A stretch of DNA of 64,000 nt, taken from the NCBI RefSeq assembly GCF_028609845.1, contig NZ_CP063191.1, forward strand, positions 124,001 to 188,000, read 5' to 3'. The notes beneath the pieces were generated by a model. That model was not told the origin of the DNA and did not search any database. It worked only from the letters and a program-made list of their open reading frames with translations. Of this stretch, positions 1 through 46,163 are shown one piece after another (the stretch's first letter is position 1; each line of letters begins with the position of its first letter). Position numbers and translations under genes: made by a program. Source of the stretch: Corynebacterium heidelbergense. GTDB lineage: Bacteria; Actinomycetota; Actinomycetes; Mycobacteriales; Mycobacteriaceae.

Positions 1-4155
<4,155 letters not shown>

Positions 4156-4419
4156 AACATGCACCACCCCGGGGTGATACCGGGGGTTGGTGTGCCGCGC
4201 ATCCCCGTGTGGTGGTGCGTGGTGAGTACTGAAGACGAACAAGAGGATGATGGTGTGCTGTGTGCTGCCGTGACCGCTGTGGTGGTGGTGTGGTGGTGTG
4301 TGGTGGGTTGCTCGCGTTGACTGTGCAGTGTCTGGCATGCCACAGCAGCCCTTGTGGTGCCCCGCCTTTTTGTGTGGGGTGCGTGTGGGGGTTGGCATGT
4401 TAACAAAAGAAAATTGAGT
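4156..4419 (+). other. 23S-5S spacer
   Basis: This 264-base spacer between 23S and 5S has no tRNA and no credible gene. It contains runs of GTGGTGGTGTGGTGG on the transcribed strand (about 4270-4310), so it shares the G/T-rich character of the 16S-23S spacer. The inverted segment CACCCCGGGGTG at 4163-4174 is a small perfect palindrome that may take part in precursor processing. Confidence 0.75.
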
Positions 4420-4541
4420 GTGTCGGTGGTTGTTAGCGGCGGGGGTCACGCCCGGTCCCGTTCCGAACCCGGAAGCTAAGCCTGCCAGCGCCGATGGTAC
4501 TGCACCTGGGAGGGTGTGGGAGAGTAGGTCACTGCCGGCCA
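4420..4541 (+). rRNA. rrf: 5S ribosomal RNA
   Basis: This is an actinobacterial 5S rRNA of about 120 bases. It has the conserved core CCCGGTCCCGTTCCGAACCC and the following GAAGCTAAGCCTGCCAGCGC, ending in the ACTGCCGGCC strand that pairs with TGTCGGTGGT at the 5' end. It follows the 23S gene in the normal 16S-23S-5S order. The ends are estimated from the terminal helix. Confidence 0.95.
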
Positions 4542-4556
4542 TAAACACAGAAAAGT

Positions 4557-4626
4557 AAGCAGGGAAGACAAATCCCCACATGGACGCGGATACAACCGCG
4601 TCCCGGGGGGATTGTCTTCCCTGCTT
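4557..4626 (+). terminator. rRNA operon terminator
   Basis: A 15-base perfect inverted repeat, AAGCAGGGAAGACAA at 4557-4571 and TTGTCTTCCCTGCTT at 4612-4626, encloses a second G/C-rich stem (GACGCGG / CCGCGTC with CCCC / GGGG). It sits directly after the 5S gene and before a convergent gene, so it is the likely transcription stop for the rRNA operon. It may act in both directions. Confidence 0.85.
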
Positions 4627-4782
4627 TCCTCATGCCCACACAACGGGGATACGCCACAGCCCGGAACGCACGTGCTCTATGTTGCGCTGGCGGTGACGAG
4701 AATAATCGCTGCGCTTGCTGAATCATTCCGGGCGGGTTCCTTACCCGCCTGTTTCTACGGGGGGTCTTCGCACTGGTGTTTT

Positions 4783-5829
4783 TTACCGTTGTGGGGCGTC
4801 TTCTCCGCTGCGGCGGGAAGTGAAGACCCGTGTGCGCCCGGTGATGGGGTCGGTAAACCGGAGTTGACTGGCGCATAATTGCAGCGGGCGGGAGAAGTCC
4901 TCGTCCTCTACCGTCGGGGGAGACGGCAGGGCGGCCTGCGGGTCGTATAACGCGGTGTGCGTTAGGTGTTCGTACAGGACGTCGTTGAAAATTGGCAGGC
5001 CGAGGGTGCGTAGCGCCAGTCGCAGTTGGTGGGTCTTCCCGGTCAGCGGCCGCAGCACCCACTCGAGTGCGGCCTGGCCCGCGTATTGCGTTTCCCGTAC
5101 TCCGAGTACTTGCGTGTCGGCGTTTGGTGGGCCGTCTACCTCGAGGTGGGCGGCGAGTCGGCCCCGGATCTTGATCATGCGGTGGCTGAGAGTCCACGGG
5201 GTCTCCGGGGTGGGGTCGGGCCATGTTTGCCAGTCGGCGAATTGCGCAATGGGGTGGTGATGGGACGCTGGGGGAATTGGCGTCCTCGCCTGATAAATCT
5301 TTTCCGGAATCCGCCGCTCAAACATCGCCTGATACAGGCCCCGGACCTGCCGACGAGCCGTGAACATCAGCACCCCGCTGGTCAGCCGGTCCAGGCGGTG
5401 GGCGGGGGATAATTCCGGATTGCCTAATTGGTTGCGCAGCTTCACGGTAGCTGTCTGCGCGATGTGCTGCCCCCGCGGCATCGTCGCCAAAAAAGGCGGC
5501 TTATCCACCACGACTAAATGATCGTCCTGGTGAAGGACGGGGATCACACCGGGGACCTCTCGCTCAATGGCCGGGCGTCGGTAGAAATTAACAAACTGCC
5601 CCGGACGCAGAAGGTCGCTGGGAGCGAAGGGGCGGCCGTGATCGTCTCGCACAAGCCCATCGGCGAAGCGCTGCTCTATAGCGGCATCATCGTCGTCGGG
5701 GTGCCGATGGCGCTGCTCGTGAATCAATCGCGAGACAAACTGCAGTGCGCTCACGGGCTCTGCGGAATCGGCATGCAGGCACGCGCGCGTTGGATTCAAG
5801 CCCGCACGGATTGGTAACGGTTTGATCAA
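4783..5829 (-). CDS. RluA-family RNA pseudouridine synthase
   Basis: This 348-residue protein should convert uridine to pseudouridine in rRNA or tRNA. The RluA signature HRLDRLTSGVL is seen around residues 144-154, with Asp147 as the expected catalytic aspartate, after the typical segment HLVVVDKPP near 104-112. The C-terminal part has the family's KTHQLRLAL motif. The N-terminal 85 residues look like a degenerate S4-type region. The target position cannot be told from sequence. The longest frame starts at a TTG codon at 5829, only 17 bases from the divergent micro-gene, so the true start may be internal, for example the GTG codon for Val26. It converges on the rRNA operon and stands alone. 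Confidence 0.88.
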   Translation of the reverse strand: MIKPLPIRAGLNPTRACLHADSAEPVSALQFVSRLIHEQRHRHPDDDDAAIEQRFADGLVRDDHGRPFAPSDLLRPGQFVNFYRRPAIEREVPGVIPVLHQDDHLVVVDKPPFLATMPRGQHIAQTATVKLRNQLGNPELSPAHRLDRLTSGVLMFTARRQVRGLYQAMFERRIPEKIYQARTPIPPASHHHPIAQFADWQTWPDPTPETPWTLSHRMIKIRGRLAAHLEVDGPPNADTQVLGVRETQYAGQAALEWVLRPLTGKTHQLRLALRTLGLPIFNDVLYEHLTHTALYDPQAALPSPPTVEDEDFSRPLQLCASQLRFTDPITGRTRVFTSRRSGEDAPQR

Positions 5830-29749: not shown

Positions 29750-30829
29750 TCAGCAGGGATCCGTGAAGTCCCCGGCGGTGTTGAGCGTTCGGCCGTTGCC
29801 GCCGGAGCTGGCCTTCATCTGACACATCGCTTGGCGGTCCGAGCCGAAGTCGTAGTAGACGGGGTAGATGTCCTCACCATTAATCTGCGCACGCAATGAT
29901 GGGCACTGCCCAGGGTAGGTGAATTGGGTGCCATGGACCTGGTTGAGCGCCATCCCCAGCTTGGATTGAATAGCGCCCCGGTTGTTTCCCGCAGCGTGCA
30001 CCGAGCGCATGATGAGAATGTTGCGCCCGTCGCAGGCGGGGCTTGCGATCTCGAAGGGCCGTTGCTCCCCCAACCCGGCGGTGGTGACGTATCGACCGCC
30101 CCGGTCCCCACTTGTGCCCGCGCCACCATCACCCGCACCATCACCCGCACCGCCACTGCCCCCGCCACTGTTGTCTTCGGACCCGCGCGCCGATGCCGCG
30201 TTCGCCGCCACCGTCTTCTCGCAGATGCCGAGCTTGGCCCGCACCTGTTCGGGTACCCCCATCTGGTCGATGGTCTGCTGCCGGTAGCAGGTGTTTCCCG
30301 TCTGCGCGTAGGTCCCGTCGCGGCGCACGGTTTCCCATTGCTGCCCGCTCCAGCGGTAGAGCGAGACCACGTCCGAGCCCATCATCCCCGCGTACATGAA
30401 GTTGCCCTCGCAAGCGACGATGGCGTTGGCTTCAGCGTGCTGCCCGTTCGTGTGCAGCGACTCCAAGGTGCATTCCGGTGTGGCCCCGCCTTGAGCTCCC
30501 GACCCGCCGTGTGCTCCGGAGGCGGCACCGGCACCGCTATTGCCGTCGCTGCCATTGCCGGCCGATGGAGCTGCCCCCGCCGTTCCAGCTGCCGAGGAGC
30601 TGCTGGTCGCCTCCGCCTGGAAGTTCGCGGCGCGTTGGTCCGCCTTTCCGGACTGGTCCCACCAGTACCATCCCCCGCCTGCGGCGATCCCCAATGCGGC
30701 GATCATCCCCACCGCCAGCAGGATCGGCCCCCGACCCTGCGCTTTCATCCGACCCTGCGCCGTCACCTGCCCGTGGGCCTGCCCCTCGCCCTCCGAGTTG
30801 GGTACGGGCTGTTCTCCCCATTGCTGCAT
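29750..30829 (-). CDS. Membrane-anchored Cys-rich protein, paralogue A (function unknown)
   Basis: This 359-residue protein has no assignable family. It has a cytoplasmic N-terminus, one membrane helix near residues 35-55 (LLAVGMIAALGIAAGGG), a Gly/Ser/Ala-rich linker and an extracellular part with about eight conserved cysteines. Shared landmarks with the next gene are CEGNFMYAG, GLGEQ, SPACDGRNILI, YPGQCPSLRAQINGEDIYP, VYYDFGSDRQAMC and the identical C-terminus NTAGDFTDPC. The segment with DIYPVYYDFGSDRQA recalls SPOR-like envelope domains, but that is a guess. A Gly-rich insert near 225-245 is absent from its partner. It is the downstream member of a tandem duplication. Confidence 0.75.
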   Translation of the reverse strand: MQQWGEQPVPNSEGEGQAHGQVTAQGRMKAQGRGPILLAVGMIAALGIAAGGGWYWWDQSGKADQRAANFQAEATSSSSAAGTAGAAPSAGNGSDGNSGAGAASGAHGGSGAQGGATPECTLESLHTNGQHAEANAIVACEGNFMYAGMMGSDVVSLYRWSGQQWETVRRDGTYAQTGNTCYRQQTIDQMGVPEQVRAKLGICEKTVAANAASARGSEDNSGGGSGGAGDGAGDGGAGTSGDRGGRYVTTAGLGEQRPFEIASPACDGRNILIMRSVHAAGNNRGAIQSKLGMALNQVHGTQFTYPGQCPSLRAQINGEDIYPVYYDFGSDRQAMCQMKASSGGNGRTLNTAGDFTDPC

Positions 30830-31055: not shown

Positions 31056-31967
31056 CTAGCAGGGATCCGTGAAGTCTCCAGCGGTGTTGAGGGTGCGGGC
31101 GTTCCCGCCTTGGCGGCCCTTGGCTTCACACATGGCCTGCCGGTCGGAGCCAAAATCGTAGTAGACGGGGTAAATGTCCTGCCCATCAATCTGTGCCCGC
31201 AGGGAGGGGCACTGGCCCGGGTAGGTGAACTGGCTGCCATGATATCTGTTCAGGGCGATCCCCAGTTGGGTCATGATGCCCCCGCGATCGTTGCCGGGGA
31301 CATGCACGGATTCCACGATGAGGATGTTGCGCCCGTCGCAGGCGGGGCTGGAGACATTCCACGGGCTTTGCTCGCCCAGCCCTGCCTGGGTGACGTACCT
31401 GCTGTTGGCGTTGCTGCTGTCGGCGCCATCAGCTGCTGCGGAGCTGCGGCAGACCGTGATGCCCTCCCGGACATTCTGGGGGACACCGGCGTTGTCCAAT
31501 TGGCTCTGGGTATGACACGGGAAGCCCGAGTCGGACGTTCGGCTATCGGTGGGTAAAGTCTCCCACTGGCTTCCGGTCCACCGCAGGATCCGGGAATCAT
31601 CGCTACCCCGCTTCCCCGCGTGCATGAAGTTGCCCTCGCAAACTGTGATGACGTTCAAGGAAGACAGCGCTGCATTCTGGTGGACAGCCTCCAAGGTGCA
31701 CGGTGCGCCACCACCTTGGGGGTTCTGGGTGTTGGCCGAGGGGGAGGGCAGCGCGCTACCGGAGGCGCTGGTCTGCGGGGTCTGCGACGTCGCCTGAAAT
31801 TGCGGGTCGGCCTGTGGCGTGTCCTCGCTGCGGGTGAACCAGACAACACCGCCGATGACGGCGACGAGGATGGCGACACCGGCGATGGCGATCGGCAAGA
31901 CCAGGCGATTGTTCTTCTTCGCGGGGTCGCCCCAGCCCTGCTCGTTATGCGTGCCCCACTGGTCCAT
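31056..31967 (-). CDS. Membrane-anchored Cys-rich protein, paralogue B (function unknown)
   Basis: This 303-residue paralogue of the preceding gene has the same order: a short cytoplasmic start (MDQWGTHNEQGWGD), one membrane helix near residues 22-44 (LVLPIAIAGVAILVAVIGGVV), a Gln/Ser/Thr linker and the Cys-rich extracellular region with CEGNFMHAG, SPACDGRNILI and YPGQCPSLRAQIDGQDIYP. The frame runs upstream to 32648, but the ATG at 31967 has GAAGGGAACAGG before it and matches the partner's N-terminus (MxQWG). The two genes are 226 bases apart, same strand. No catalytic motif is visible; the paired Cys suggest disulfides in the envelope. Confidence 0.78.
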   Translation of the reverse strand: MDQWGTHNEQGWGDPAKKNNRLVLPIAIAGVAILVAVIGGVVWFTRSEDTPQADPQFQATSQTPQTSASGSALPSPSANTQNPQGGGAPCTLEAVHQNAALSSLNVITVCEGNFMHAGKRGSDDSRILRWTGSQWETLPTDSRTSDSGFPCHTQSQLDNAGVPQNVREGITVCRSSAAADGADSSNANSRYVTQAGLGEQSPWNVSSPACDGRNILIVESVHVPGNDRGGIMTQLGIALNRYHGSQFTYPGQCPSLRAQIDGQDIYPVYYDFGSDRQAMCEAKGRQGGNARTLNTAGDFTDPC

Positions 31968-32180
31968 CCTGTTCCCTTCGCGTCGAGGTCTCGGTGCGCG
32001 CCGTTCCTGGCGTCCGGAACGAAATTCTAGAACATCAACACCGCAGCGGTGACGATGACGACCTGGCCTTATCCGAAAAGGTGTGCTCAGTGTGATGACG
32101 TAGAAGGTGGATTTGGCGGCACCGGAGGTGGGCACCGCCTGGGCGGCCAGACGGGGCAGATCCTTAGGATGAGAGGCACT

Positions 32181-32654: not shown

Positions 32655-33845
<1,191 letters not shown>

Positions 33846-34495
33846 CCCCCACGGGCAGCTACACCGCACTCGTCGCAATTATTCGAGATCCCCCATATGG
33901 GGGAGTGGCTTGCCTCCGTGGCTTCCCACACGAAGGTGCAGTCAGACAGCAGCCATTAACCTTTTGGCAATCTCGTCGTTCCTGACTTGTTCCATTTTCG
34001 GCTACGTTCATCGATCTCCAATCCTTAGTCGGACTTGAATCTGCGTCAGACATCCTTCTAGTGGGGACGAGACTGCCAACAGGTCAGTCGGACATGGTTG
34101 AATTGCCTCATCTCGGCTTCGGCCAGGTTGCGAGCGTTCCGAAGGGGTCTCCCGCCAGCGAATTCACCGCGGCGGTTCCGTTCCGGAGGAGTCGCATGTG
34201 GTCGTGGTGCTGGTGTCCGTCGTACTACAGAGATGTTTCGAAAGTGTTTCTGCTACGAGCCCGGCGTCAATTATTGATCTCGCGTGAAGCTAGATGTCTG
34301 CCTTGTGACACTTAGACAAATTTCATCCCAGCTTCACCCCTCCTTGGGTCCGTTTTGCCCCGTAACATACATTTCTCGGTACAAGTATTGCGTGACTAAC
34401 TGACGTCGCTGTAACGTCCGGTTTTACTGACAGTCTTCGTAGCCGGGGTCGAGTTCACTAGCGCCCCGTTCAGTAACGCCTGAGTAGGAATGCGT
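33846..34495 (+). other. 650-base intergenic region before the pilus locus
   Basis: No credible gene is seen in either strand; the two frames of 60-85 codons lack start signals and sensible composition. The G+C is lower than in the flanking genes. It holds the perfect palindrome TCCCCCATATGGGGGA at 33889-33904 soon after glf, a weak terminator candidate without a T-run, and a possible promoter TTGCGT (34388-34393) and TGTAAC (34410-34415) with a 16-base spacer, about 80 bases ahead of the adhesin gene. The region probably carries the regulation of the pilus operon and one edge of the accessory block. Confidence 0.55.
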
Positions 34496-35902
34496 ATGTC
34501 ACGTCAAGGCAGGCTTTCGGGAATCTGGTCTATCCTAGCTTTCGCCACCGTGTGGTTCGTGGCCTCTGCAATGGCGCTCGCCTCTGCGCAACCGAGCACC
34601 GCGCAAACGACGACCTCGGCCCCTGTTACGACAACCACCACGGCGCCGACGACTACCGCCCTAGCACCTAATACCGCGACTGCTACATCTCAGCCATCGA
34701 CAAGCAGTTCGGTACTTGCACCGTCTCAGGCAACCCCAAGCACTACATCCGCACCCGCCCCAACCCCCGGAGCCCAAACTCAAGGAACGAGTACTGGTGC
34801 GGCTGGATCGTTTCAGGATCCTCGCTTCGTCTGTGGAACAAAGGTGGGGTTGCTCTTTGATGCTTCCTACACCACACAAGGGCAAACCGCGCAGATGCAG
34901 GACGCGGCGCGGCAGGTCATCAACGCTCTTAAAAATACGGGGAGCTCTTTCGGTATCCACACCTTTTCTGATAGCTCCCCGAGCACCGCCCTGTATCCGA
35001 ACTTTGGGCCCGTCCTGTTGGACGCCGCCGGAGTAACCCAGGCGACAAATGCTGTGAACAATCTGCCAAATGCGTGGTCCACCACGGCGCGCGCCTCCAA
35101 TCTTGCTGCGGGGTTCAACTCGATGGCGGGCAAGGGATACGACGCCGTCATCGTCATCACCGACGGAAAACCGTACAAGGCCAACAGACGAGGGCCCGGT
35201 TTCCCAACTCAAACCTCGTGGGAGGACCTGACCAAGTCCAGCGCCGCAGCCCAGGATCTCGCATCCAAAGGAACGGGCATATTTTCGCTGGTGGTCGGCA
35301 GTCTGTCCTTCCCTGTTTATAACCACCTTGAGACCACAGGAACTCGGCAACCCTACTTTCTCTACAGTGAGACACCCCCAGCCGGCGTGCAGCGGGACAC
35401 GACGAAGGTGAACTGGAGGTACGACTTCAATGGCCAGCTGACCCCCGTGAAGGCCAGCGACACGATCACAAACGATGCGAATGGGATTCCGTACTACGAC
35501 AGAAGCGGAAGGCTGTACCCTATCCGCACGACGTGGGCGATGACGGACACCTTGGCTTACATGAGTTCATTCTCCGTCAAGGCCGACCGGATGGGGTCCT
35601 ACGCCGATCTTCAGAACTACATCCGCGGCCTTATCACCGGTTGCTTCGGCACGGTCATCGTGAACAAGCAGATCGTGGACGACAGCGGAAAGGTAATCCA
35701 ACAGGGCAACGCCGCGACCTCCGGCTTCACCTTCCAGGCGGACCGGGCCCAGGTCAACGGCCAGACCCAGTCCAACGTCTCCCAGAACACGGACAACGCG
35801 GGCAAAACCAGCTTCAATTACCCGATCACAACCGGTCCCGGCAGCATCCGCATCCAGGAGACCCCCATGCGTTCCGGTTTCGCCCTAGCCCCGCAAAATT
35901 AG
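34496..35902 (+). CDS. vWA tip adhesin (SpaC/F-like), N-terminal part, ends at in-frame amber codon
   Basis: This is the N-terminal 468 residues of a pilus tip adhesin. A signal peptide (residues 1-30, cleavage near ALASA-QP) is followed by a Thr/Ser/Pro-rich stalk to about 105, then a von Willebrand A-like domain with the metal site region GLLFDASYT (DxSxT) and VIVITDGKP, then a CnaB-like segment beginning VIVNKQIVDDSGKV. The frame stops at TAG 35900-35902 but continues in the same frame for 412 codons to an LPKSG anchor. Alone this product would be secreted and not anchored. ATG 34496 is chosen for its spacing to GTAGGA; 34490 is the alternative. A natural suppressor or sequence error would restore one protein of about 880 residues. 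Confidence 0.82.
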   Translation: MSRQGRLSGIWSILAFATVWFVASAMALASAQPSTAQTTTSAPVTTTTTAPTTTALAPNTATATSQPSTSSSVLAPSQATPSTTSAPAPTPGAQTQGTSTGAAGSFQDPRFVCGTKVGLLFDASYTTQGQTAQMQDAARQVINALKNTGSSFGIHTFSDSSPSTALYPNFGPVLLDAAGVTQATNAVNNLPNAWSTTARASNLAAGFNSMAGKGYDAVIVITDGKPYKANRRGPGFPTQTSWEDLTKSSAAAQDLASKGTGIFSLVVGSLSFPVYNHLETTGTRQPYFLYSETPPAGVQRDTTKVNWRYDFNGQLTPVKASDTITNDANGIPYYDRSGRLYPIRTTWAMTDTLAYMSSFSVKADRMGSYADLQNYIRGLITGCFGTVIVNKQIVDDSGKVIQQGNAATSGFTFQADRAQVNGQTQSNVSQNTDNAGKTSFNYPITTGPGSIRIQETPMRSGFALAPQN

Positions 35903-35908
35903 GGGGGA

Positions 35909-37147
35909 ATGCCCGTTGCTGCTACCTGCACCGCGCGGGATGCAGCCGGCCTAAGTCGCCCGATCGGATATGGCAGTGGCTCATCTATCGTGGTCACTTC
36001 AGACTTGCCTAATAATGCGTTCACCCTCACTGGCCTTGGCAAGGATGACCGTGTGGAATGTGTCGTGCAGAACAAAGCCCAGGTCGCTAACTTCGCGTTG
36101 TCCAAGAAACCCTACCCGCCGGCTCAACCCAGGATTGTCGGAAAGCAAAACGGGCAGCGGCTGAACTCCGAGTATCTGGTGGAGGTTACGAACCCCTCCA
36201 CCACCGCTGGCGCCCCCACCGAACTGCGGGAGCTGCCCAGCACGCCACCCGGGTTCACGGTGGACTCCGTCACGGTCGTCCCAGATGGACCAACCCCGCT
36301 GGTGACCTCCGCCCAGGAGATGACGCGCTCGAACAACACGTGGACCCTCGGGGCCCCGGCGTTGCAACCCGTCCCCGCCGGACAAACTTCTCGGGCGAAA
36401 GTGGTGGTGGTCTACCGCGTGACCGATCCCACCGTTGTTAACGACCAAGCCCTCACCTGCTCTGGGTCGGATGCCACCAAGGGCTTCTACAACAACGCGC
36501 AACTGGCTTTCGGTAGCAACAAGACCTCAGACAGCGCTGCCTGCGTCAGCGGTCTTACCGTGGGCTTCTCCGTGACAAAGAAAATCGCCGGTACAGATGC
36601 GAACACAAAGGACCAAGCCGCCGCGATTCTCGAAGGCGCCGGAACTTTCCCCATCACCTACGAGATCAAAAACACCGGCAAGGCCCCCGTGACAAGCGTC
36701 CGGCTTAACGACCAACGCCTCAACATCAGCACCGGGCAGCCCGGAGCAGCGCTCCCCATAACGGGGCTGACGTGCAACGCTGCCAACCGCATGACCGCGA
36801 TCACTGATGGGGTAGAGGTCACCCCGCAGACCCCACTCGCCACCGGCCAGACCCTCATCTGCCAATGGAACGCCCCGGCTAGCCTCATGCCCAACTACGG
36901 CGACTATCACGCGGACCGGATCCAGGTGACCAGCCAATACGCCCCGCCCGCCGGACAAGTCGCGGCAAGCCAAGACCCCCCAATCGCCCTGCAAGCCGTT
37001 GACCCCGCCTGGGCCGTCAGGATTCCCGTTGCCGTGGGGACCCTGCCCAAGTCCGGCGGACGCGGCGCCACCGGCTACCTGCTCCTCGGGCTCGCTGTCG
37101 TCGGTATCGGAGCGATAAGCCTAACCAGAACCCACCGAACCACCTAA
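35909..37147 (+). CDS. Tip adhesin C-terminal part with LPKSG sorting signal, no own signal peptide
   Basis: This 412-residue frame is in the same phase as the preceding gene and separated from it only by TAG and two Gly codons. It begins without any signal peptide (MPVAATCTARDAAG), so it is the continuation of the broken adhesin, not a separate exported protein. It contains repeated Ig-like/DUF11-type segments (VTNPSTTAGAPTELREL; YEIKNTGKAPVTSVRLND) and ends in a sorting signal: LPKSGGRGATG at residues 379-389, a hydrophobic helix and the basic tail RTHRTT. The only purine-rich match before its ATG is the G run directly touching it, too close for normal initiation. It is expected to be made only by readthrough. 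Confidence 0.75.
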   Translation: MPVAATCTARDAAGLSRPIGYGSGSSIVVTSDLPNNAFTLTGLGKDDRVECVVQNKAQVANFALSKKPYPPAQPRIVGKQNGQRLNSEYLVEVTNPSTTAGAPTELRELPSTPPGFTVDSVTVVPDGPTPLVTSAQEMTRSNNTWTLGAPALQPVPAGQTSRAKVVVVYRVTDPTVVNDQALTCSGSDATKGFYNNAQLAFGSNKTSDSAACVSGLTVGFSVTKKIAGTDANTKDQAAAILEGAGTFPITYEIKNTGKAPVTSVRLNDQRLNISTGQPGAALPITGLTCNAANRMTAITDGVEVTPQTPLATGQTLICQWNAPASLMPNYGDYHADRIQVTSQYAPPAGQVAASQDPPIALQAVDPAWAVRIPVAVGTLPKSGGRGATGYLLLGLAVVGIGAISLTRTHRTT

Positions 37148-37414
37148 GGACGAAAGGACCCCTCACCATCCAACGCGCCGCTGAGGGCGTCCTTAAGAAA
37201 AAGAATCCACAACGACACAACCACCGAAAGACAAATGAAAGAGGTCAAGGCCATGAGATCGCACCCCAAGGGTTGTCGAGACGGATGACTGCTTCCAACC
37301 GCCGCAACACCACCACATCGAAAACACCATCCAAGGCACCGCCACCCCGGTATCGCCCGTAGGCACATCCCCGGACCCATAGGCGGAACAACCGTTTGGA
37401 CTGAAAGGACCTAC

Positions 37415-38911
37415 ATGAAATCCCTCAAGCGCACCCTCGCCATCGCGGCGGCCGCAGGAATGCTGTCCACCGCCGGGATGACCGGCATCGCCACGGCCCA
37501 GAGCGCGACTCCTGCGGCCCCGCCGTCAACCATCAGCGCCAACCAGCAAGCCAGCTTGCACATCCACAAGTTCCAGAACGACACCCCCGGTCCCGCCGGG
37601 AACGGCACCCCCATCGGGGACACCTCCGGGCTGGGCAAGCCGCTGGCCGGCGCCGTGTTCAAGGTGGAACAGGTCAACGGTGTGGACCTCACGAAGAACG
37701 AGGGCTGGGTACAGGCCGCAGACATCGCCAAGGGCACGACACAGCCGAGCGGGTTCGGCACAGCAAAGAACGTCACCACCAACGCCCAGGGGCAGGCGGA
37801 TGTCGCGGGACTACCTATCGGCCTCTACCGCGTCACGGAGACCTCGGCGCCGGCAGGCAACCAGATCACCACCGAGCCCTTCTACGTCACGCTGCCGATG
37901 ACCAATCCGCAGGACCGGTCCAGCTGGATGTACGACGTCCACGTCTACCCCAAGAACCAGAAGCAGACCGACGTGATCTCCAAGAAGGTCATCGACGAAA
38001 GTGCGGTGATCGAGGGCCGCAACATCCAGTACGACGTGACGGGCAAGCTGCCTAGCTCCCAGAAGCTGGCCCGGGCCGAGCTCGTGGACGTCTACCCCGC
38101 CGACCGCCTGGGCACCCCACAGGTCACCAAGGTCACCTACGGCGACGGCACGCAAGCCAACCCATCCGACTACACACTCGATACCAGCACCCCCGGCCAA
38201 GCCAAGGTCAAGTTCACCCAATCCGGCCTGGCCAAGCTGGACACCCTCCAAGGGGATAACCGCAAGGCCACCGCGACGTTCAGCTTCCCGGTGACGAAGA
38301 GCCAAGGAACCGGGCCGCTCAACCCGATCGAGAACCGCGCCCTCGTGATCGCCAAGGGTGAAGGGGACAATACCCCGGACCCGGATCCTGACAACCCCGA
38401 TGACCCCAGCGTGATCCCCCCGGGCAAGGGCCCCGAAAGCTACTTCGGCAACGTCAAGGTCTCCAAGACCGACGAGAACAACACCCTGCTCAATGGCGTG
38501 GGCTTCGATCTGTACCGCTGCGCCGACAAGGACAACCTCGGCGAGAAATTGGCGGAGAATTTGACCACCCAGAACGGTTCACTGACCATTAACGGCCTGC
38601 ACGTCAACGACTTCGTCAACGGCGCCGCCGGGCAAACGGATCCGTCCGGTTACTGCCTGGTGGAGGTGAAGGCCGCCGAGGGCCACTCCCTGCTCGCGGA
38701 ACCCGCCTACTTCCAAGTGCTGCGCAGCGGTGAAGGCCCCGTGAACCTGACCAGCGTGGACCTGAAGAACGTCAAGGACAACGCCGGATTCAACCTGCCG
38801 CTGACCGGTGGCAAGGGCGTGACCCTGCTGCTCGTGCTCGGCGGGCTGATCATCGTCATCGGCGCGGGCTACGCCTACATGAGCAGCCGCAAGGACCGCG
38901 GCGAAAGCTAG
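37415..38911 (+). CDS. Major (shaft) pilin, SpaA/SpaD-like
   Basis: This 498-residue backbone pilin polymerises into the covalent pilus shaft. A Sec signal peptide ends near ATAQS (residue 30). The pilin motif WMYDVHVYPK places the polymerising lysine at residue 180. CnaB-type domains follow, with the E-box YCLVEVKAAEGH late in the protein, and intramolecular isopeptide bonds are likely. The sorting signal is LPLTG at 461-465, then a hydrophobic helix and SSRKDRGES. GAAAGGA precedes the ATG. The gene lies between the adhesin and the class C sortase. A 267-base gap upstream holds no gene. Confidence 0.95.
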   Translation: MKSLKRTLAIAAAAGMLSTAGMTGIATAQSATPAAPPSTISANQQASLHIHKFQNDTPGPAGNGTPIGDTSGLGKPLAGAVFKVEQVNGVDLTKNEGWVQAADIAKGTTQPSGFGTAKNVTTNAQGQADVAGLPIGLYRVTETSAPAGNQITTEPFYVTLPMTNPQDRSSWMYDVHVYPKNQKQTDVISKKVIDESAVIEGRNIQYDVTGKLPSSQKLARAELVDVYPADRLGTPQVTKVTYGDGTQANPSDYTLDTSTPGQAKVKFTQSGLAKLDTLQGDNRKATATFSFPVTKSQGTGPLNPIENRALVIAKGEGDNTPDPDPDNPDDPSVIPPGKGPESYFGNVKVSKTDENNTLLNGVGFDLYRCADKDNLGEKLAENLTTQNGSLTINGLHVNDFVNGAAGQTDPSGYCLVEVKAAEGHSLLAEPAYFQVLRSGEGPVNLTSVDLKNVKDNAGFNLPLTGGKGVTLLLVLGGLIIVIGAGYAYMSSRKDRGES

Positions 38912-39038
38912 GCGTCACCGGGGCGCGCGTCGGCAACGCTCCGGCCGATTGCGCCCCTGTCCGGTCCGGGGGGCCCAGGCACCCCGGACAACGCACCTAC
39001 CCCCTACAAAGACACACTCGGTGAAGTGAGGAATTGCG

Positions 39039-40073
39039 GTGACCCAACAACTAGCCACCTCGCCGTCTCCCAATGCCGGGCCGCACGCGGATAAGAAGCG
39101 CCGGCGTGGGGCGAAGCGTGGGTCCAAGCGGGGCGCGAACCGTGTTGTCGCGATCCTCATCATGCTCGCCGGGGTGTGCCTGCTGCTCTACCCCGTCGCC
39201 GCCACCTGGATCCAGAACAAGATGCAGTCCAACGCGGCGCAGTCCTACACCCAGCAGATCCAGGACAACACCACGGCCGAGCAGCGGCGGGAATCGCTCG
39301 AGCGCGCCCACCAGTGGAACACCGACCACGCCCAGGGGCCCATCCTGGACCCCTGGCTGGCCCGCGTAGATAAGAGCAACACCGAGTACGCTCAGTACCT
39401 CAAGCAGTTGGACCTGCAAGACGTCATGGCCCGCGTGAAAATCCCGAGCATCAACTCGGATTTGCCGGTCTATCACGGAACCGACCAGGAGACCCTCAGC
39501 CGAGGCGTAGGCCACCTCTTCGGCAGCTCCCTACCCGTCGGCGGCGACGGCACCCACGCCGTGCTCACGGGACATACCGGCCTGGCCAACGCCACGCTGT
39601 GGGACAACCTCACCAAGGTGAAAAAGGGCGATGCCTTCTACATCAACGTCTCCGGGGAAACCCTGAAGTACCAGGTGGACGATATCCGGGTGGTCCTGCC
39701 CGAACAGACCGACAACCTGCGCCCCGTCCCCGGCCAGGACCTCATCACGCTCATCACCTGCACCCCCTATGGGGTCAATTCCCACCGCCTGCTCGTTACC
39801 GGCAAGCGGGTACCCATGGACCCGAAGGAGGCCGAGGACGTTCTCAATAGCGGATCCGTGCCCCTGCAATGGTGGCAGAAGCTAGCGATCGCCGCTGCGG
39901 CAGTGGTGCTGCTGGTGTTGCTGTGGTGGATGCTGCGGGCGCGTAAGAAGCGCTCCCAGGCTGCCCAGGCGGTCGGGAAGGGTGAGGACGCCACCACCCT
40001 GGAAACCGCCACCACCCCCCGCACCGGCGGCAAGCATCGCCCGGAAAATACCCGAGGTAAGGCGGGTCGATGA
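39039..40073 (+). CDS. Class C (pilus) sortase
   Basis: This 344-residue pilin-polymerising transpeptidase cuts LPxTG pilins and joins them to the lysine of the next subunit. An N-terminal basic tail and membrane helix (ILIMLAGVCLLLYPVAATW) anchor it. The lid motif DPW (ILDPWLARV, about residue 105) identifies class C. Catalytic His179 is in LTGHTGLANATLWDNL, Cys241 in TLITCTPYGVNSHRLLVTG, with the Arg in NSHR. A second membrane helix near 275-300 and a basic tail follow, typical of pilus sortases. It starts at GTG 39039 and overlaps the minor pilin gene by 4 bases. It is the only sortase in the window. Confidence 0.96.
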   Translation: MTQQLATSPSPNAGPHADKKRRRGAKRGSKRGANRVVAILIMLAGVCLLLYPVAATWIQNKMQSNAAQSYTQQIQDNTTAEQRRESLERAHQWNTDHAQGPILDPWLARVDKSNTEYAQYLKQLDLQDVMARVKIPSINSDLPVYHGTDQETLSRGVGHLFGSSLPVGGDGTHAVLTGHTGLANATLWDNLTKVKKGDAFYINVSGETLKYQVDDIRVVLPEQTDNLRPVPGQDLITLITCTPYGVNSHRLLVTGKRVPMDPKEAEDVLNSGSVPLQWWQKLAIAAAAVVLLVLLWWMLRARKKRSQAAQAVGKGEDATTLETATTPRTGGKHRPENTRGKAGR

Positions 40074-41539
40074 CCATGCCCACGAGGCCCCCTCTCGCCC
40101 CTGCCCTCCTGCGTGCCATGGCGCTCGCGCTCGCGGCAGTGCTGGTCCTGGCCGTCGCGCCGGGCCTGCGGCCCGGTTCCCGGGCTGGCCTGCCCGGCGG
40201 CTGGAACCCGCTGGGGACCGCCGCCGCCCAAGGTGGGCAGGCGCCGGCATACCCCTCGACCATCGACGGGGCCCGGACCGGATCCCTCAGCATCCACAAA
40301 TCCGCAGGGGACCCCCTCAAGCAATTCGGGGACCCCACCAACCCGATCGCTGAACGCGGGCTCCGGCCCATGCTGGGGATCGCTTTCACCATCCGCAAGG
40401 TGGACGACGTGGACCTGCGGACGAACTCCGGCTGGGAGAAGCTGGCCAAGACTCGTATCGCCGACTACTACGTCGGGGGTTCGCGGGCGGGCTCCTTGGG
40501 CGCGCCGCTGGTGGCGTCCACAAACGCAGAAGGAACCGCAACCTTCCCCAACCTGCCCGTCGGCGCCTACTACGTGGAAGAAGACCACGCCTCTGCGCAG
40601 AAAGCGGCCGCGAGCGTAGTCACCCCCTTCATCGTCACCATCCCCCAGACTGATCACCGCGACGGTGCGGCCCCGGACTCCTGGATTTACGACGTGGAAG
40701 TGTTCGCCAAGGACCAGCACCTGGATGTCAACAAGTCAGCCTCCCGGACCTGCGCGAACGCCAAAGACAGATTCGACTACGGCGTGAGCGCCGCCCTGTC
40801 GGCCCCGGACGCGGCGGACAGCATCAAGCGCATGGAACTGGCCGACCCCCTGCCCGACCAGGTGCGCCTCGTGGAGGGTAGCTCCAAGGTCTACCTGACT
40901 AGCGGCCGAGACAAGGGCGTGAAGCAGGAACTCGCCGAGGGGACGGACTACACCGTGCGCACCGCACCGGGGAACGTGGCCAGCGTGGTGCTCACCGCCA
41001 GCGGGCTGAAAAAGGCTGCCAAGGAGCGGCGTGGTCGACCCGATGCCGCCATCACCTGGACCTTCACCGTGGAGGTGCTCAGCGGTACTGACAAACAGCC
41101 AGGCGGGCAACAGACCGGGGTCGACTCCGCAGATAACCGCGCCTACCTTTTAGTTGACGGCTACCCGGAGTTCACCACCACCGAGACCCCAGGGGTGCCC
41201 AGCAACAAGGTGCGGGTAAAGATCGGGGGCTGCAGCCCCACCGCGCCCGTCACCCCCATCCCCATTCCGGTGCAGAACCCCGACCTCCCCGGAGGCGGGC
41301 CCGGAAGCCCCGTCGGCGAAAGCGGCGGCCCGGGCGGGGACGGTGGGATTAGCCCGGGCGGGGAGACCGCGGCGAACCCGGATCAGCCCGGGGCGAACGG
41401 AACCCAAACCGATGCCGGGCGCTTCGGCGGGTTGGCCATGACGGGTGCCAACATCCTCATCCTGGTGCTGGTCGGTGCGGGGCTGATCGGGGTTGGGGTG
41501 CTGCTGACTAGGCGGAACAAACGAAACCAGGAGGAGTAG
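40070..41539 (+). CDS. Minor (basal) pilin, SpaB/SpaE-like
   Basis: This 489-residue minor pilin probably sits at the base of the fibre. A long signal peptide or hydrophobic start (ALALAAVLVLAVAP, residues 18-31) is followed by a first CnaB-like domain with the pilin-like motif WIYDVEVFAKDQ, a second domain, and a Gly/Pro-rich spacer. The sorting signal is LAMTG at 455-459. C. diphtheriae SpaB uses a comparable LAxTG, which the housekeeping sortase recognises to anchor the finished pilus to peptidoglycan. Its ATG overlaps the sortase stop (ATGA), with an alternative ATG at 40076. Confidence 0.9.
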   Translation: MTMPTRPPLAPALLRAMALALAAVLVLAVAPGLRPGSRAGLPGGWNPLGTAAAQGGQAPAYPSTIDGARTGSLSIHKSAGDPLKQFGDPTNPIAERGLRPMLGIAFTIRKVDDVDLRTNSGWEKLAKTRIADYYVGGSRAGSLGAPLVASTNAEGTATFPNLPVGAYYVEEDHASAQKAAASVVTPFIVTIPQTDHRDGAAPDSWIYDVEVFAKDQHLDVNKSASRTCANAKDRFDYGVSAALSAPDAADSIKRMELADPLPDQVRLVEGSSKVYLTSGRDKGVKQELAEGTDYTVRTAPGNVASVVLTASGLKKAAKERRGRPDAAITWTFTVEVLSGTDKQPGGQQTGVDSADNRAYLLVDGYPEFTTTETPGVPSNKVRVKIGGCSPTAPVTPIPIPVQNPDLPGGGPGSPVGESGGPGGDGGISPGGETAANPDQPGANGTQTDAGRFGGLAMTGANILILVLVGAGLIGVGVLLTRRNKRNQEE

Positions 41540-43896: not shown

Positions 43897-44021
43897 GCCA
43901 CCACATCTCCCCGCCGCCCAGCCCGCCCGGCGCGCCTGACCCCCGCCGCCCCCCATCGTGGATAATGATGGACGCACAACTGTCCACGAGCGTGTCTACA
44001 CGGAGGTCGGCGCACCCAACC

Positions 44022-46163
44022 ATGTCCGCAACCAGCAGCTTAGATAACCAGTTTGACCCCACCCGTCTAACCCGCATCATCCTGCCGAAGAGCGGCGAAC
44101 CCCGAGATGTGCGCTCCCTCTACATCGTGGAAAACGAGCAAGCTACCCCCGGCCGCGTCACCGCGCTCTCGCGTACCGAGGCAAAGATCCCGGCGGGCAC
44201 GGAGATTAGTTTCGAAACCTACTTCAACGCCTTCCCCGCCTCCTACTGGCGCCGCTGGAGCCAGCTCAGCGAGGTGCAGCTGCGCGTGGACCTCACCGGG
44301 GATGCCCGCATCGACATCTACCGTTCGAAAATCGATGGTTCCCGTATCGCCGTGACCGGGGGCAACGTGGACGTGGACAGCAGCGGCCGGGGGCTTGCGG
44401 AATTCACCGTCTCCCTGGCCCCCTTCGAGGACGGCGGCTGGATCTGGTTCGACATCACCTGCGAATCCGAGACCACCATTCACTCCGCCGGTTGGTACGC
44501 AACCCGACCCGCGCAAGGCCAGGTCCTGTGTTCCGAAGTGCAGATTTGGGACGCCACCACCAACGCGTACGCCACACTGTCCGCCGGGGAGCAGCTTCCT
44601 CCGGCCGAACCGCGCATCACCGTGGGCATCCCGACTTTTAACCGCCCGGCCGATGCCGTCGCCGCCCTGGAAGCCCTGTCTAGCGACCCGGAAGTAGACC
44701 GCGTGATCGATGCCGTGATCATGCCGGACCAGGGCACCAAGCACCCCGCCGACGAGCCCGGTTTCCCCGCCGTCGCCGAACACTACGGGCAGCGGCTGCG
44801 CATCGTGCCGCAGGGCAACCTCGGCGGATCCGGCGGGTACTCCCGCATCATGTACGAGGCCCGGGACCCGCAGCGCGGCACCGACAGCCCCTACATCCTC
44901 TACATGGATGATGACATCGCCATCGAGCCGGACTCCGTCCTGCGCGCCCTCGCCGCCAGCCGGTACGCCCGCAACCCCATGCTCGTCGGCGGGCAGATGC
45001 TCAACCTGCAGGAGCGCAGCCACCTGCACACCATGGGGGAGGTCATCGACCGCAGCCGCTTCATGTGGACCGCGGCTCCTCACACCCACTACGACCACGA
45101 CTTCTACCGCCACCCCCTGCGGGATCGCGGCACCTACGGGCGCAACGCCTCTGGGGAGCACATCGACTCGAAGGACCTGCACCGCCGAATCGACGTGGAC
45201 TACAACGGCTGGTGGATGTGCATGATCCCGCGCGTTGTCGCGGACACCATCGGCCAACCCCTACCGCTGTTCATCAAGTGGGACGACGGCGAGTTCGGGC
45301 TGCGGGCGCGAGACCACGGGTTCCCCACTGCCTCCTGGCCCGGCATTGCGATCTGGCACATGGCATGGTCCGACAAGGACGATGCCATCGACTGGCAGGC
45401 CTACTTCCACCTGCGCAACCGCCTGATCGTCGCCGCGCTGCAGCACGAGGGCTCCCCGAACAGCATCGTCGCATCCATGGCGAAGGCCACCACGAAGCAC
45501 CTGCTGTGCCTGGAGTACTCCACGGTCGCCATCCAGAACCAGGCGATGAAGGACTTCCTGGCCGGGCCGGATCACCTTTTCGACATCCTGGAGACGGCCC
45601 TGCCCCGCATCAACAAGATGCGCAAGAACTACTCCGACGCGGTGGTCGTGCCCTCCGCGGCGGACCTGCCCCCGGCCAGCGGGGGACCCGCCAACCTCAC
45701 CCGCATCCCCCTGAGCGCTGGGGCCAAAGTGAAAACTCTCGCCCGCGCACTCTACAACAACGCCAAGCCGGCGGACGCCCGCCATCACCACGCCCCCCAG
45801 GTGAACCTGCCCCCCATCGAGGCCCGCTGGTTCAGCCTGTCCCGCGTGGATGGAGCCACCGTGACCACGGCGGATGGGCGCGGCGTGGTTTACCGCAAGC
45901 GGGATCGCGGGCAAATGCTCGCGCTGGCCAAGGAGTCCGCCCAGTTGCAGCGGGAAGTGGCCCGCCGCTTCGATGAACTGCGCACCACCTACCGGGCGGC
46001 CCACCCCTACCTGACCAGCCGGGAGGCCTGGGCCCAGGTCTTCGAGCCCGGATCGGATTTGGCCCGGAGCGGCGCCCAGGTGCCCGGGGCCCCTGCGCAG
46101 CGGGAACCTGTGCGTGGTGAGACTGCGCGTGGTGAGACTGCGCGAGGGGAGTCCGCCCAGTGA
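44022..46163 (+). CDS. glfT2: Bifunctional UDP-galactofuranosyl transferase GlfT2
   Basis: This 713-residue cytoplasmic-face glycosyltransferase polymerises galactofuranose into the galactan with alternating beta-1,5 and beta-1,6 links. An N-terminal beta-domain (residues 1-190) precedes the GT-A core: VGIPTFNRPADAVAAL, the metal-binding YMDDDIAIEP (Asp296-298), GWWMCMIPR, FIKWDDGEFGLRARDHG and IAIWHMAWSDKDDAIDW with the catalytic-region Asp and His. A helical C-terminal domain follows. The tail ends in a short repeat, RGETARGETARGESAQ, not expected in the family. The protein is about 70 residues longer than the mycobacterial enzyme. It overlaps the PAP2 gene by 4 bases. Confidence 0.95.
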   Translation: MSATSSLDNQFDPTRLTRIILPKSGEPRDVRSLYIVENEQATPGRVTALSRTEAKIPAGTEISFETYFNAFPASYWRRWSQLSEVQLRVDLTGDARIDIYRSKIDGSRIAVTGGNVDVDSSGRGLAEFTVSLAPFEDGGWIWFDITCESETTIHSAGWYATRPAQGQVLCSEVQIWDATTNAYATLSAGEQLPPAEPRITVGIPTFNRPADAVAALEALSSDPEVDRVIDAVIMPDQGTKHPADEPGFPAVAEHYGQRLRIVPQGNLGGSGGYSRIMYEARDPQRGTDSPYILYMDDDIAIEPDSVLRALAASRYARNPMLVGGQMLNLQERSHLHTMGEVIDRSRFMWTAAPHTHYDHDFYRHPLRDRGTYGRNASGEHIDSKDLHRRIDVDYNGWWMCMIPRVVADTIGQPLPLFIKWDDGEFGLRARDHGFPTASWPGIAIWHMAWSDKDDAIDWQAYFHLRNRLIVAALQHEGSPNSIVASMAKATTKHLLCLEYSTVAIQNQAMKDFLAGPDHLFDILETALPRINKMRKNYSDAVVVPSAADLPPASGGPANLTRIPLSAGAKVKTLARALYNNAKPADARHHHAPQVNLPPIEARWFSLSRVDGATVTTADGRGVVYRKRDRGQMLALAKESAQLQREVARRFDELRTTYRAAHPYLTSREAWAQVFEPGSDLARSGAQVPGAPAQREPVRGETARGETARGESAQ

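What the first reader, a model, noticed from the sequence alone, without database searches (positions are those of the whole stretch)
34496..37147. Pilus tip adhesin split by one in-frame amber codon
The frame from 34496 stops at TAG (35900-35902), then continues in the same phase through GGG GGA ATG for another 412 codons to an LPKSG anchor. No base was gained or lost. The first half has the signal peptide and vWA domain; the second has the wall anchor and no signal peptide. This means a recent nonsense mutation, programmed or suppressed readthrough, or a sequence error. If real, the strain would release the vWA part as a soluble protein and build tipless pili. The open downstream frame with normal composition says the change is young or still under selection.
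Basis: partly seen in the sequence, partly recalled or inferred. Interest (0 to 1): 0.72.

Follow-up and report, generated by a model that had tools for sequence, protein, structure and literature searches.

The report
Stop codon breaks pilus tip gene
In this Corynebacterium genome a stop codon cuts the pilus-tip gene in two, most likely an ordinary loss-of-function mutation; two related species also seem to have broken this one gene, and relatives carry a tiny conserved gene beside it that looks new.

Summary
In detail: frame 34496-35899 ends at TAG 35900-35902 and stays open in phase for 414 more codons to an LPKSG anchor. Four relatives have the gene whole in one frame (947-968 codons); two more have it broken elsewhere (G185 frameshift, G125 signal peptide in another frame), but all six are open across this place. 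Readthrough is unlikely: none of 52 tRNAs reads UAG, release factor 1 is present, TAG ends 24 of 43 coding-like frames in the window, and no stable RNA fold surrounds it. The stop splits a conserved domain, so a deliberate two-piece protein is unlikely. I read it as a natural nonsense allele of the only tip pilin detected, known in kind: Enterococcus faecalis DS5 has a nonsense ebpA, sheds truncated tip and makes very long pili (PMC3708956). Sequencing error is not excluded; no sister strain was available. Unexpected: 3 of 8 loci of this pilus subtype have a broken tip gene beside open shaft, sortase and base genes, and 7 of 8 carry a conserved 11-codon ORF ending RPRCNSE at the tip/shaft boundary; the window does not.

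The parts
34496..35899 (+). First part of the interrupted tip-pilin gene (468 codons): signal peptide (ASA-QP near residue 31), Thr/Pro-rich linker, vWA domain, start of an isopeptide-type domain
   Evidence: orthologues; hydrophobic signal-like stretch
34817..35668 (+). vWA domain and following segment, DPRFVCG to CFGTVIVNK
   Evidence: profile match E 2.5e-114 (the profile contains this sequence); C. pelargi orthologue VWA E 2.7e-9
35900..35902 (+). In-frame TAG
   Evidence: 6 of 6 relatives are open across this place
35903..37147 (+). In-phase continuation (414 codons, no signal peptide seen) ending in the LPKSG wall anchor (from 37043) and TAA
35642..36076 (+). Segment split by the stop: conserved Lys and Glu on the first side, Asn on the second (CnaB/SpaA-type pattern; label recalled, no Pfam hit)
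   Evidence: alignment; positions; no Pfam match
37253..37288 (+). 11-codon ORF MRSHPKGCRDG where relatives have the conserved ...RPRCNSE ORF; diverged or unrelated
37415..38911 (+). Major (shaft) pilin, SpaH/EbpB family, whole
   Evidence: NF033902, 356 bits
39039..40073 (+). Class C (pilus) sortase, whole
   Evidence: NF033745, 288 bits
40070..41539 (+). Minor/base pilin, LAMTG anchor (by eye), whole
   Evidence: NF033902, 189 bits

Best explanation
A nonsense codon has inactivated the only pilus tip-adhesin gene detected in this Corynebacterium genome. Shown from sequence: both halves are collinear with a gene that is open across this place in six relatives, the stop stands for one residue without a shift of frame, and the other genes of the cluster are whole. 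Inferred: ribosomes stop at codon 469; the first fragment is exported and, lacking the wall-sorting signal, released; the second half is made little or not at all and could not be exported. The pilus lacks its tip; depending on whether this species can start a shaft without a tip, and on polarity, it makes tipless, fewer and longer, or no pili.
For: Whole one-frame orthologues with signal-like stretch and anchor in G007 (C. pelargi), G203, G148 and G242, and the same four-gene order. No length difference at the stop relative to G007, G203 and G148 (G125, G185 and G242 have one residue more, which makes one gap column). None of 52 tRNA genes has a CUA anticodon; RF1 found, 451 bits; TAG ends 24 of 43 coding-like frames of at least 150 codons (includes some antisense shadows and the broken frame). 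RNA around the stop folds no better than shuffles (z +1.13). One cluster of pilins, one match to the tip profile in the genome. Second half coding-like and without a further break. The same gene is broken differently in two relatives, G185 and apparently G125. Precedents: E. faecalis DS5 (PMC3708956, passages); tip pseudogenes or frameshifts in C. silvaticum and C. pseudotuberculosis (PMC7751848, PMC3544762, passages).
Against: One genome only, no sister strain, no expression data. A long intact downstream frame would also fit a leaky stop. The vWA assignment of the window protein is by homology; direct Pfam scans are negative. The structure model was too poor to place the stop in a fold (mean pLDDT 50.9).
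Confidence: 0.84

Rival explanations
1. Sequencing or assembly error, or a mutation picked up in culture; the natural isolate has a whole gene.
For: Single genome; one codon beside a run of six G; the other cluster genes are whole.
Against: Assembly of 2 contigs, 98.7% complete; the two halves are in phase, so it is not the length error usual at homopolymers.
Confidence: 0.09
2. Programmed or suppressed readthrough: a fraction of ribosomes decode UAG and make full-length tip, tuning tip number.
For: Open coding-like continuation; tip dosage affects pilus length in E. faecalis (PMC3708956, passages).
Against: No UAG-reading tRNA among 52; RF1 present; TAG is the commonest stop in the window; no fold; 0 of 6 relatives have a stop there. 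tRNA-Pyl and its synthetase were not searched by name.
Confidence: 0.04
3. Two functional pieces: secreted vWA part plus a separately translated anchored part.
For: ATG six bases after the stop, a spacing that allows re-initiation; the first part keeps the vWA core.
Against: No signal peptide on the second part; the G-run ends one base before the ATG, too close for a usual ribosome-binding site; conserved Lys/Glu and Asn of one segment fall on different sides.
Confidence: 0.02
4. Phase-variable switch by slippage in the G6 run next to the stop, as in Bifidobacterium pilus genes.
For: G6 run at 35902-35907; B. breve first pilus genes switch by G-tract slippage (PMC9187656, abstract and sections 15 and 21).
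Against: Both halves are already in phase and the TAG begins before the run, so a change of run length would not remove it.
Confidence: 0.01

Closest known systems
Enterococcus faecalis DS5 ebpA nonsense allele (PMC3708956, passages)
   Same: Natural premature stop in a vWA tip-pilin gene with the shaft and base pilin genes intact; truncated product lacks the wall anchor
   Different: There shown by blots and microscopy (product in supernatant, very long pili); other phylum; here sequence only
Broken tip-pilin genes of Corynebacterium: C. silvaticum spaC and spaF (PMC7751848), C. pseudotuberculosis 267 spaF (PMC3544762), passages
   Same: Broken tip genes in sortase-pilus clusters of the genus
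   Different: Reported as pseudogenes or frameshifts; C. silvaticum has all pilus genes but spaB broken, here only the tip
C. diphtheriae Spa-type pili (tip, shaft, base; passages of PMC2830990, PMC5784534, PMC11389406)
   Same: Tip, shaft and base pilins joined by pilus-specific sortases
   Different: This cluster is a four-gene type shared with C. pelargi, tip first, one sortase
B. breve G-tract pilus switch (PMC9187656, abstract and two sections)
   Same: First pilus gene split into a part with signal peptide and a part with anchor
   Different: Frameshift at a G-tract, reversible; here an in-phase stop
S. gallolyticus Pil1 leader-peptide attenuation (PMC3894217, passages)
   Same: Short ORF ahead of pilin genes, compared with the RPRCNSE ORF of the relatives
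   Different: There a repeat-containing leader plus terminator upstream of the operon; here 11 conserved codons between tip and shaft genes, no consistent hairpin

Membership tests
vWA tip pilin of a sortase-assembled pilus | vWA domain | tested here: met
   By homology: orthologue VWA E 2.7e-9, window aligns over it at 28-38% identity to five relatives. Direct Pfam scan of the window piece negative
vWA tip pilin of a sortase-assembled pilus | Signal peptide and wall-sorting signal on one polypeptide | tested here: not met
   Both are encoded but on opposite sides of the TAG; met in 4 of 6 relatives, G007, G203, G148, G242; not in G125 and G185
vWA tip pilin of a sortase-assembled pilus | Linkage to shaft pilin, class C sortase and base pilin | tested here: met
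vWA tip pilin of a sortase-assembled pilus | Location at the pilus tip | not testable with these tools
   needs microscopy
Nonsense pseudogene | Homologues open and collinear across the stop | tested here: met
   6 of 6 relatives
Nonsense pseudogene | No decoding of the stop | tested here: inconclusive
   No CUA tRNA in 52, RF1 present; no protein data
Programmed stop readthrough | Stop conserved among relatives | tested here: not met
   0 of 6 relatives
G-tract phase switch (Bifidobacterium type) | Halves in different frames joined by slippage at the tract | tested here: not met
Leader peptide / attenuator (RPRCNSE ORF of relatives) | Conserved short ORF with ribosome-binding site ahead of the regulated gene | tested here: met
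   7 relatives, last seven codons vary only synonymously; Shine-Dalgarno strong in 6, weaker in G023
Leader peptide / attenuator (RPRCNSE ORF of relatives) | Terminator or alternative hairpin after the ORF | tested here: inconclusive
   z -3.07, -1.47, -2.70, -2.35, 0.23, -1.50, 1.41 in seven relatives; 0.25 in the window
Leader peptide / attenuator (RPRCNSE ORF of relatives) | Effect on downstream expression | not testable with these tools
   needs reporter or expression data

The most novel reading that the evidence does not exclude
In this pilus subtype the tip is a disposable, separately controlled module. Selection repeatedly removes it (stop in the window, frameshift in G185, apparent frame change in G125: 3 of 8 loci) while shaft, sortase and base genes stay open, and an undescribed 11-codon control ORF (M-x3-RPRCNSE-stop) at the tip/shaft boundary sets the tip-to-shaft ratio; the window lineage has lost both.
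Probability: 0.3. Interest if true: 0.55.

Novelty: new member of a known kind. Interest (0 to 1): 0.33.

Why it matters
As a nonsense allele it is one more natural candidate for a pilus without its tip, useful because the rest of the cluster is whole and no second tip of the same kind was found. It could test whether a corynebacterial shaft can start without a tip; what I saw in print differs between species (not needed for polymerisation in PMC3544762; fewer and longer pili in E. faecalis; no fimbriae in A. oris without both tips). If tip loss is recurrent in this subtype, it says the tip is costly in some settings. The RPRCNSE ORF, if translated, would be a small clade-specific control element between tip and shaft genes.

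Tried and rejected
Pfam and NCBIfam scans of the two halves: no family at E 0.001; at E 5 only weak unrelated hits. Pfam VWA in the own genome: no match even to this gene, so absence of other tips rests on the profile. PDB sequence searches of both halves: nothing. AlphaFold model of the C. pelargi orthologue from a three-row alignment: mean pLDDT 50.9, not used for a fold search. Rfam on the locus and on the C. pelargi junction: nothing. Promoter/terminator scan of 33800-39100: no more than shuffles, so polarity could not be judged. G150 was suspected as a broken tip; its sister G149 shows a gene without wall anchor, beside dnaA/dnaN-like genes (by eye), interrupted by an insertion, so it was not counted. 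A hairpin after the RPRCNSE ORF looked attractive in C. pelargi but is not consistent across seven relatives. An alignment of the junctions had wrong coordinates for G023 and was not used. Genome contigs gave only C. pelargi. On checking I found that G125, which I had first counted as whole, has its signal peptide in another frame; counts were changed, and the novel reading was widened and interest raised slightly for that reason.

Full report
WHAT IS THERE. The window lies in a genome of Corynebacterium (G000, 2.33 Mb in 2 contigs, 98.7% complete; the genus is inferred because G007, listed as same genus, is C. pelargi by its contig of 582334 bases). Between a UDP-galactopyranose mutase gene (32676-33845) and a galactofuranosyltransferase gene (43965-46163) sits a pilus cluster: the interrupted tip gene, a SpaH/EbpB-family shaft pilin (37415-38911), a class C sortase (39039-40073) and a minor pilin (40070-41539). 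Two other open frames lie between the cluster and the last gene and were not studied. The tip frame starts at ATG 34496, stops at TAG 35900-35902 and is open again in the same phase to TAA 37145-37147. The second half scores as coding in this frame only (0.21 bits per codon; the other five frames are negative) and 0 of 5000 shuffles keep it open. Being in phase across one stop is not in itself rare: 7 pairs in the window.

WHY IT IS ONE GENE. The first half finds matches in 21 of 101 genomes and the second in 6 of 101, own genome included in both. A two-row profile of the second half, searched in 242 genomes of the genus, matches 48 of them; six besides the window match over nearly the whole length: G007, G203, G148, G125, G185, G242. 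In all six the frame is open across the place of the TAG. In G007, G203, G148 and G242 one frame of 947 to 968 codons holds a signal-like stretch, the vWA part and the anchor. In G185 two overlapping frames share the gene, so a frameshift lies after the vWA part. In G125 the 831-codon frame has no signal-like stretch and no start codon ahead of one; a signal-like peptide resembling that of G185 lies just upstream in another frame, so this gene too looks frameshifted, in its linker. The order tip, shaft, sortase, base is the same in C. pelargi and, by length and ends of the open frames, in the other five and G023. Chromosomal neighbours differ (by eye: tgt-like and gluQ-like genes in C. pelargi), so the cassette has moved. 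Identity to the relatives over aligned columns is 27-35% in the first half and 34-42% in the second (eight stray columns of one G185 frame left out). From the G-aromatic pair before the stop to the CTA after it, window, G007, G203 and G148 have the same number of residues, so the stop stands for one residue in a variable stretch.

THE SPLIT SEGMENT. Lys of 'VNK' and Glu of 'QET' (first half) and Asn of 'VQN' (second half) have counterparts in all six relatives. This resembles the Lys-Glu-Asn set of isopeptide-forming CnaB/SpaA domains; that label is recalled and no Pfam model matches. The first fragment keeps the vWA part and the two conserved cysteines around it, so it may fold that part but not the next domain.

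NO SIGN OF DECODING. All 52 tRNA genes found with RF00005 were read by ARAGORN, 51 and the last; none has anticodon CUA. RF1 is present (451 bits). TAG ends 24 of 43 coding-like frames of at least 150 codons in the window (the count holds some antisense shadows and this frame), the shaft and base pilins among them, so general suppression would damage many proteins. The RNA around the stop folds no better than its shuffles (z +1.13; 178 of 200 shuffles fold at least as well) and nothing in Rfam matches. tRNA-Pyl and its synthetase were not searched by name.

AGE. In the second half 99 of 3726 possible substitutions give a stop. With assumed indel-to-substitution ratios of 0.05, 0.1 and 0.2 the chance of no further break falls to 5% at neutral divergence of 3.2, 1.9 and 1.1%. 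The break is young on this scale or the sequence is wrong; selection on the second half is not shown.

HOW COMMON. A vWA-segment profile from six of these tips (window included) gives 86 rows in 71 of 242 genomes, which I count by hand as 84 genes. I looked downstream of the vWA part in 57 of them. Forty unrelated ones: all 40 frames run to a sorting-signal-like tail (39 match the loose pattern used; the fortieth, L191, ends LPLVG by eye). Seven of this subtype and G023. Nine with short frames: G102 runs off its contig; the third G039 copy, G265 and G237 have no anchor and look like other membrane proteins; G147, G027 and G231 end in an anchor; G043 changes frame and looks broken, beside a sortase-like gene; G150 is not a tip. 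Upstream I could judge 28 of the 30 loci stored (two, G031 and G049, reach the locus edge): G125 and G041 lack an in-frame signal-like stretch, the other 26 have one. So of the eight loci of this subtype (window, six, G023) three are broken. Of 17 other tips seen at both ends one is (G041); by hand a one-sided Fisher test of 3 of 8 against 1 of 17 gives about 0.08, suggestive only. Errors in draft assemblies could add to it.

WHAT IT DOES TO THE PILUS. The genome has one cluster of pilins, three sortases, one match to the tip profile and few other sorting signals: besides the shaft pilin only one protein passes the Pfam cut-off, Thr/Ser-rich by eye from its DNA. No substitute tip of this kind was found. 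Papers, passages only unless stated: in E. faecalis DS5 a natural nonsense change in ebpA gives a truncated product in the supernatant and very long surface pili (PMC3708956). In A. oris loss of one of two tip pilins is tolerated but loss of both abolishes FimA assembly, and the tip's sorting signal is what places it (PMC11389406). In B. breve transcription falls after the stop in the first pilus gene (PMC9187656 section 15). For C. pseudotuberculosis the tip is described as not required for polymerisation (PMC3544762). Release of the first fragment is the firmest prediction; tipless, long or absent pili remain open. The G6 run next to the TAG cannot act like the bifidobacterial switch, because both halves are already in phase and the stop begins before the run.

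IS IT NEW. Broken tip genes are known in the genus (C. silvaticum, PMC7751848; C. pseudotuberculosis 267, PMC3544762; further pilus-gene changes in buffalo strains, PMC5406005), and a nonsense tip allele has been studied in E. faecalis. This is a new case of a known kind.

A SIDE FINDING. Between tip and shaft genes six relatives carry an 11-codon ORF with an AAGGAG- or AAGGAA-type ribosome-binding site: MIQDRPRCNSE (three), MQIDRPRCNSE, MGIDRPRCNSE, MFKQRPRCNSE. A degenerate pattern for RPRCNSE-stop matched 7 of 242 Corynebacterium genomes, one hit each, the seventh being G023 (MNDPRPRCNSE, weaker binding site); the hits lie 67-93 bases past the end of a second-half match. The backwards control gave 0, and 0 of 396 genomes drawn across the phylum match. 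None of the 40 other tip loci (L186-L225) holds the slightly shorter pattern. All of the last seven codons vary, only synonymously. The window genome has no match; at the corresponding place it has MRSHPKGCRDG (37253-37288), 105 bases after the tip's stop against 49-62 in six relatives, so it is diverged or unrelated. G185 and G125, with broken tips, keep the ORF, which speaks against a simple joint loss. Rfam has nothing. No paper in the library holds the string RPRCNSE; a search for leader peptide, pilus, attenuation and Corynebacterium listed 8 papers, of which I saw leader-peptide passages of two (PMC3894217, PMC5784534), none describing it. A control role is inferred from position and conservation only.

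Noticed in passing
L089:9274-9309 and the equivalents in L124, L125, L126, L127, L128, L170; window 37253-37288: Conserved 11-codon ORF ending RPRCNSE-stop between tip and shaft pilin genes in 7 of 242 Corynebacterium genomes, synonymous-only change in the last seven codons; absent or diverged in the window.
   Followed up: partly
L127 reversed, frames 2695-3771 and 3723-5417 (G185): The orthologous tip gene of another species is broken by a frameshift after the vWA part.
   Followed up: partly
L126 reversed, upstream of 2969 (G125): Orthologous tip gene with its signal-like peptide in another frame than the rest, an apparent frameshift in the linker.
   Followed up: partly
L141 (G041) upstream of the match: A large vWA adhesin frame without an in-frame signal-like stretch.
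   Followed up: no
L165 (G043), frames 1894-3234, 3203-4543 and onward: vWA adhesin next to a sortase-like gene in consecutive overlapping frames, apparently frameshifted.
   Followed up: partly
L166 (G150) about 3042-4478 against L176 (G149): About 1.4 kb insertion with an opposite-strand open frame interrupts a vWA membrane-protein gene that is whole in its 98%-identical sister.
   Followed up: partly
window 37145-37200: Inverted repeat right after the tip gene's TAA (TAAGGACG...CGTCCTTA with CCCTCA...TGAGGG inside) without a T-run, seen by eye; not noticed in the relatives' junctions.
   Followed up: no
window 29753-30829 and 31059-32000, minus strand: Two neighbouring paralogues, 45% identical, with a shared C-terminal region; both look membrane-anchored by eye.
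   Followed up: partly
L069, L072, L073, L081: Four tRNAs with Leu anticodons (TAA, CAA) of only 75-76 bases, against 83-87 for the TAG, CAG and GAG Leu tRNAs; short for tRNA-Leu, which usually has a long variable arm (recalled).
   Followed up: no
L050 and L076: Two tRNA-Trp(CCA) genes at distant places in the genome.
   Followed up: no
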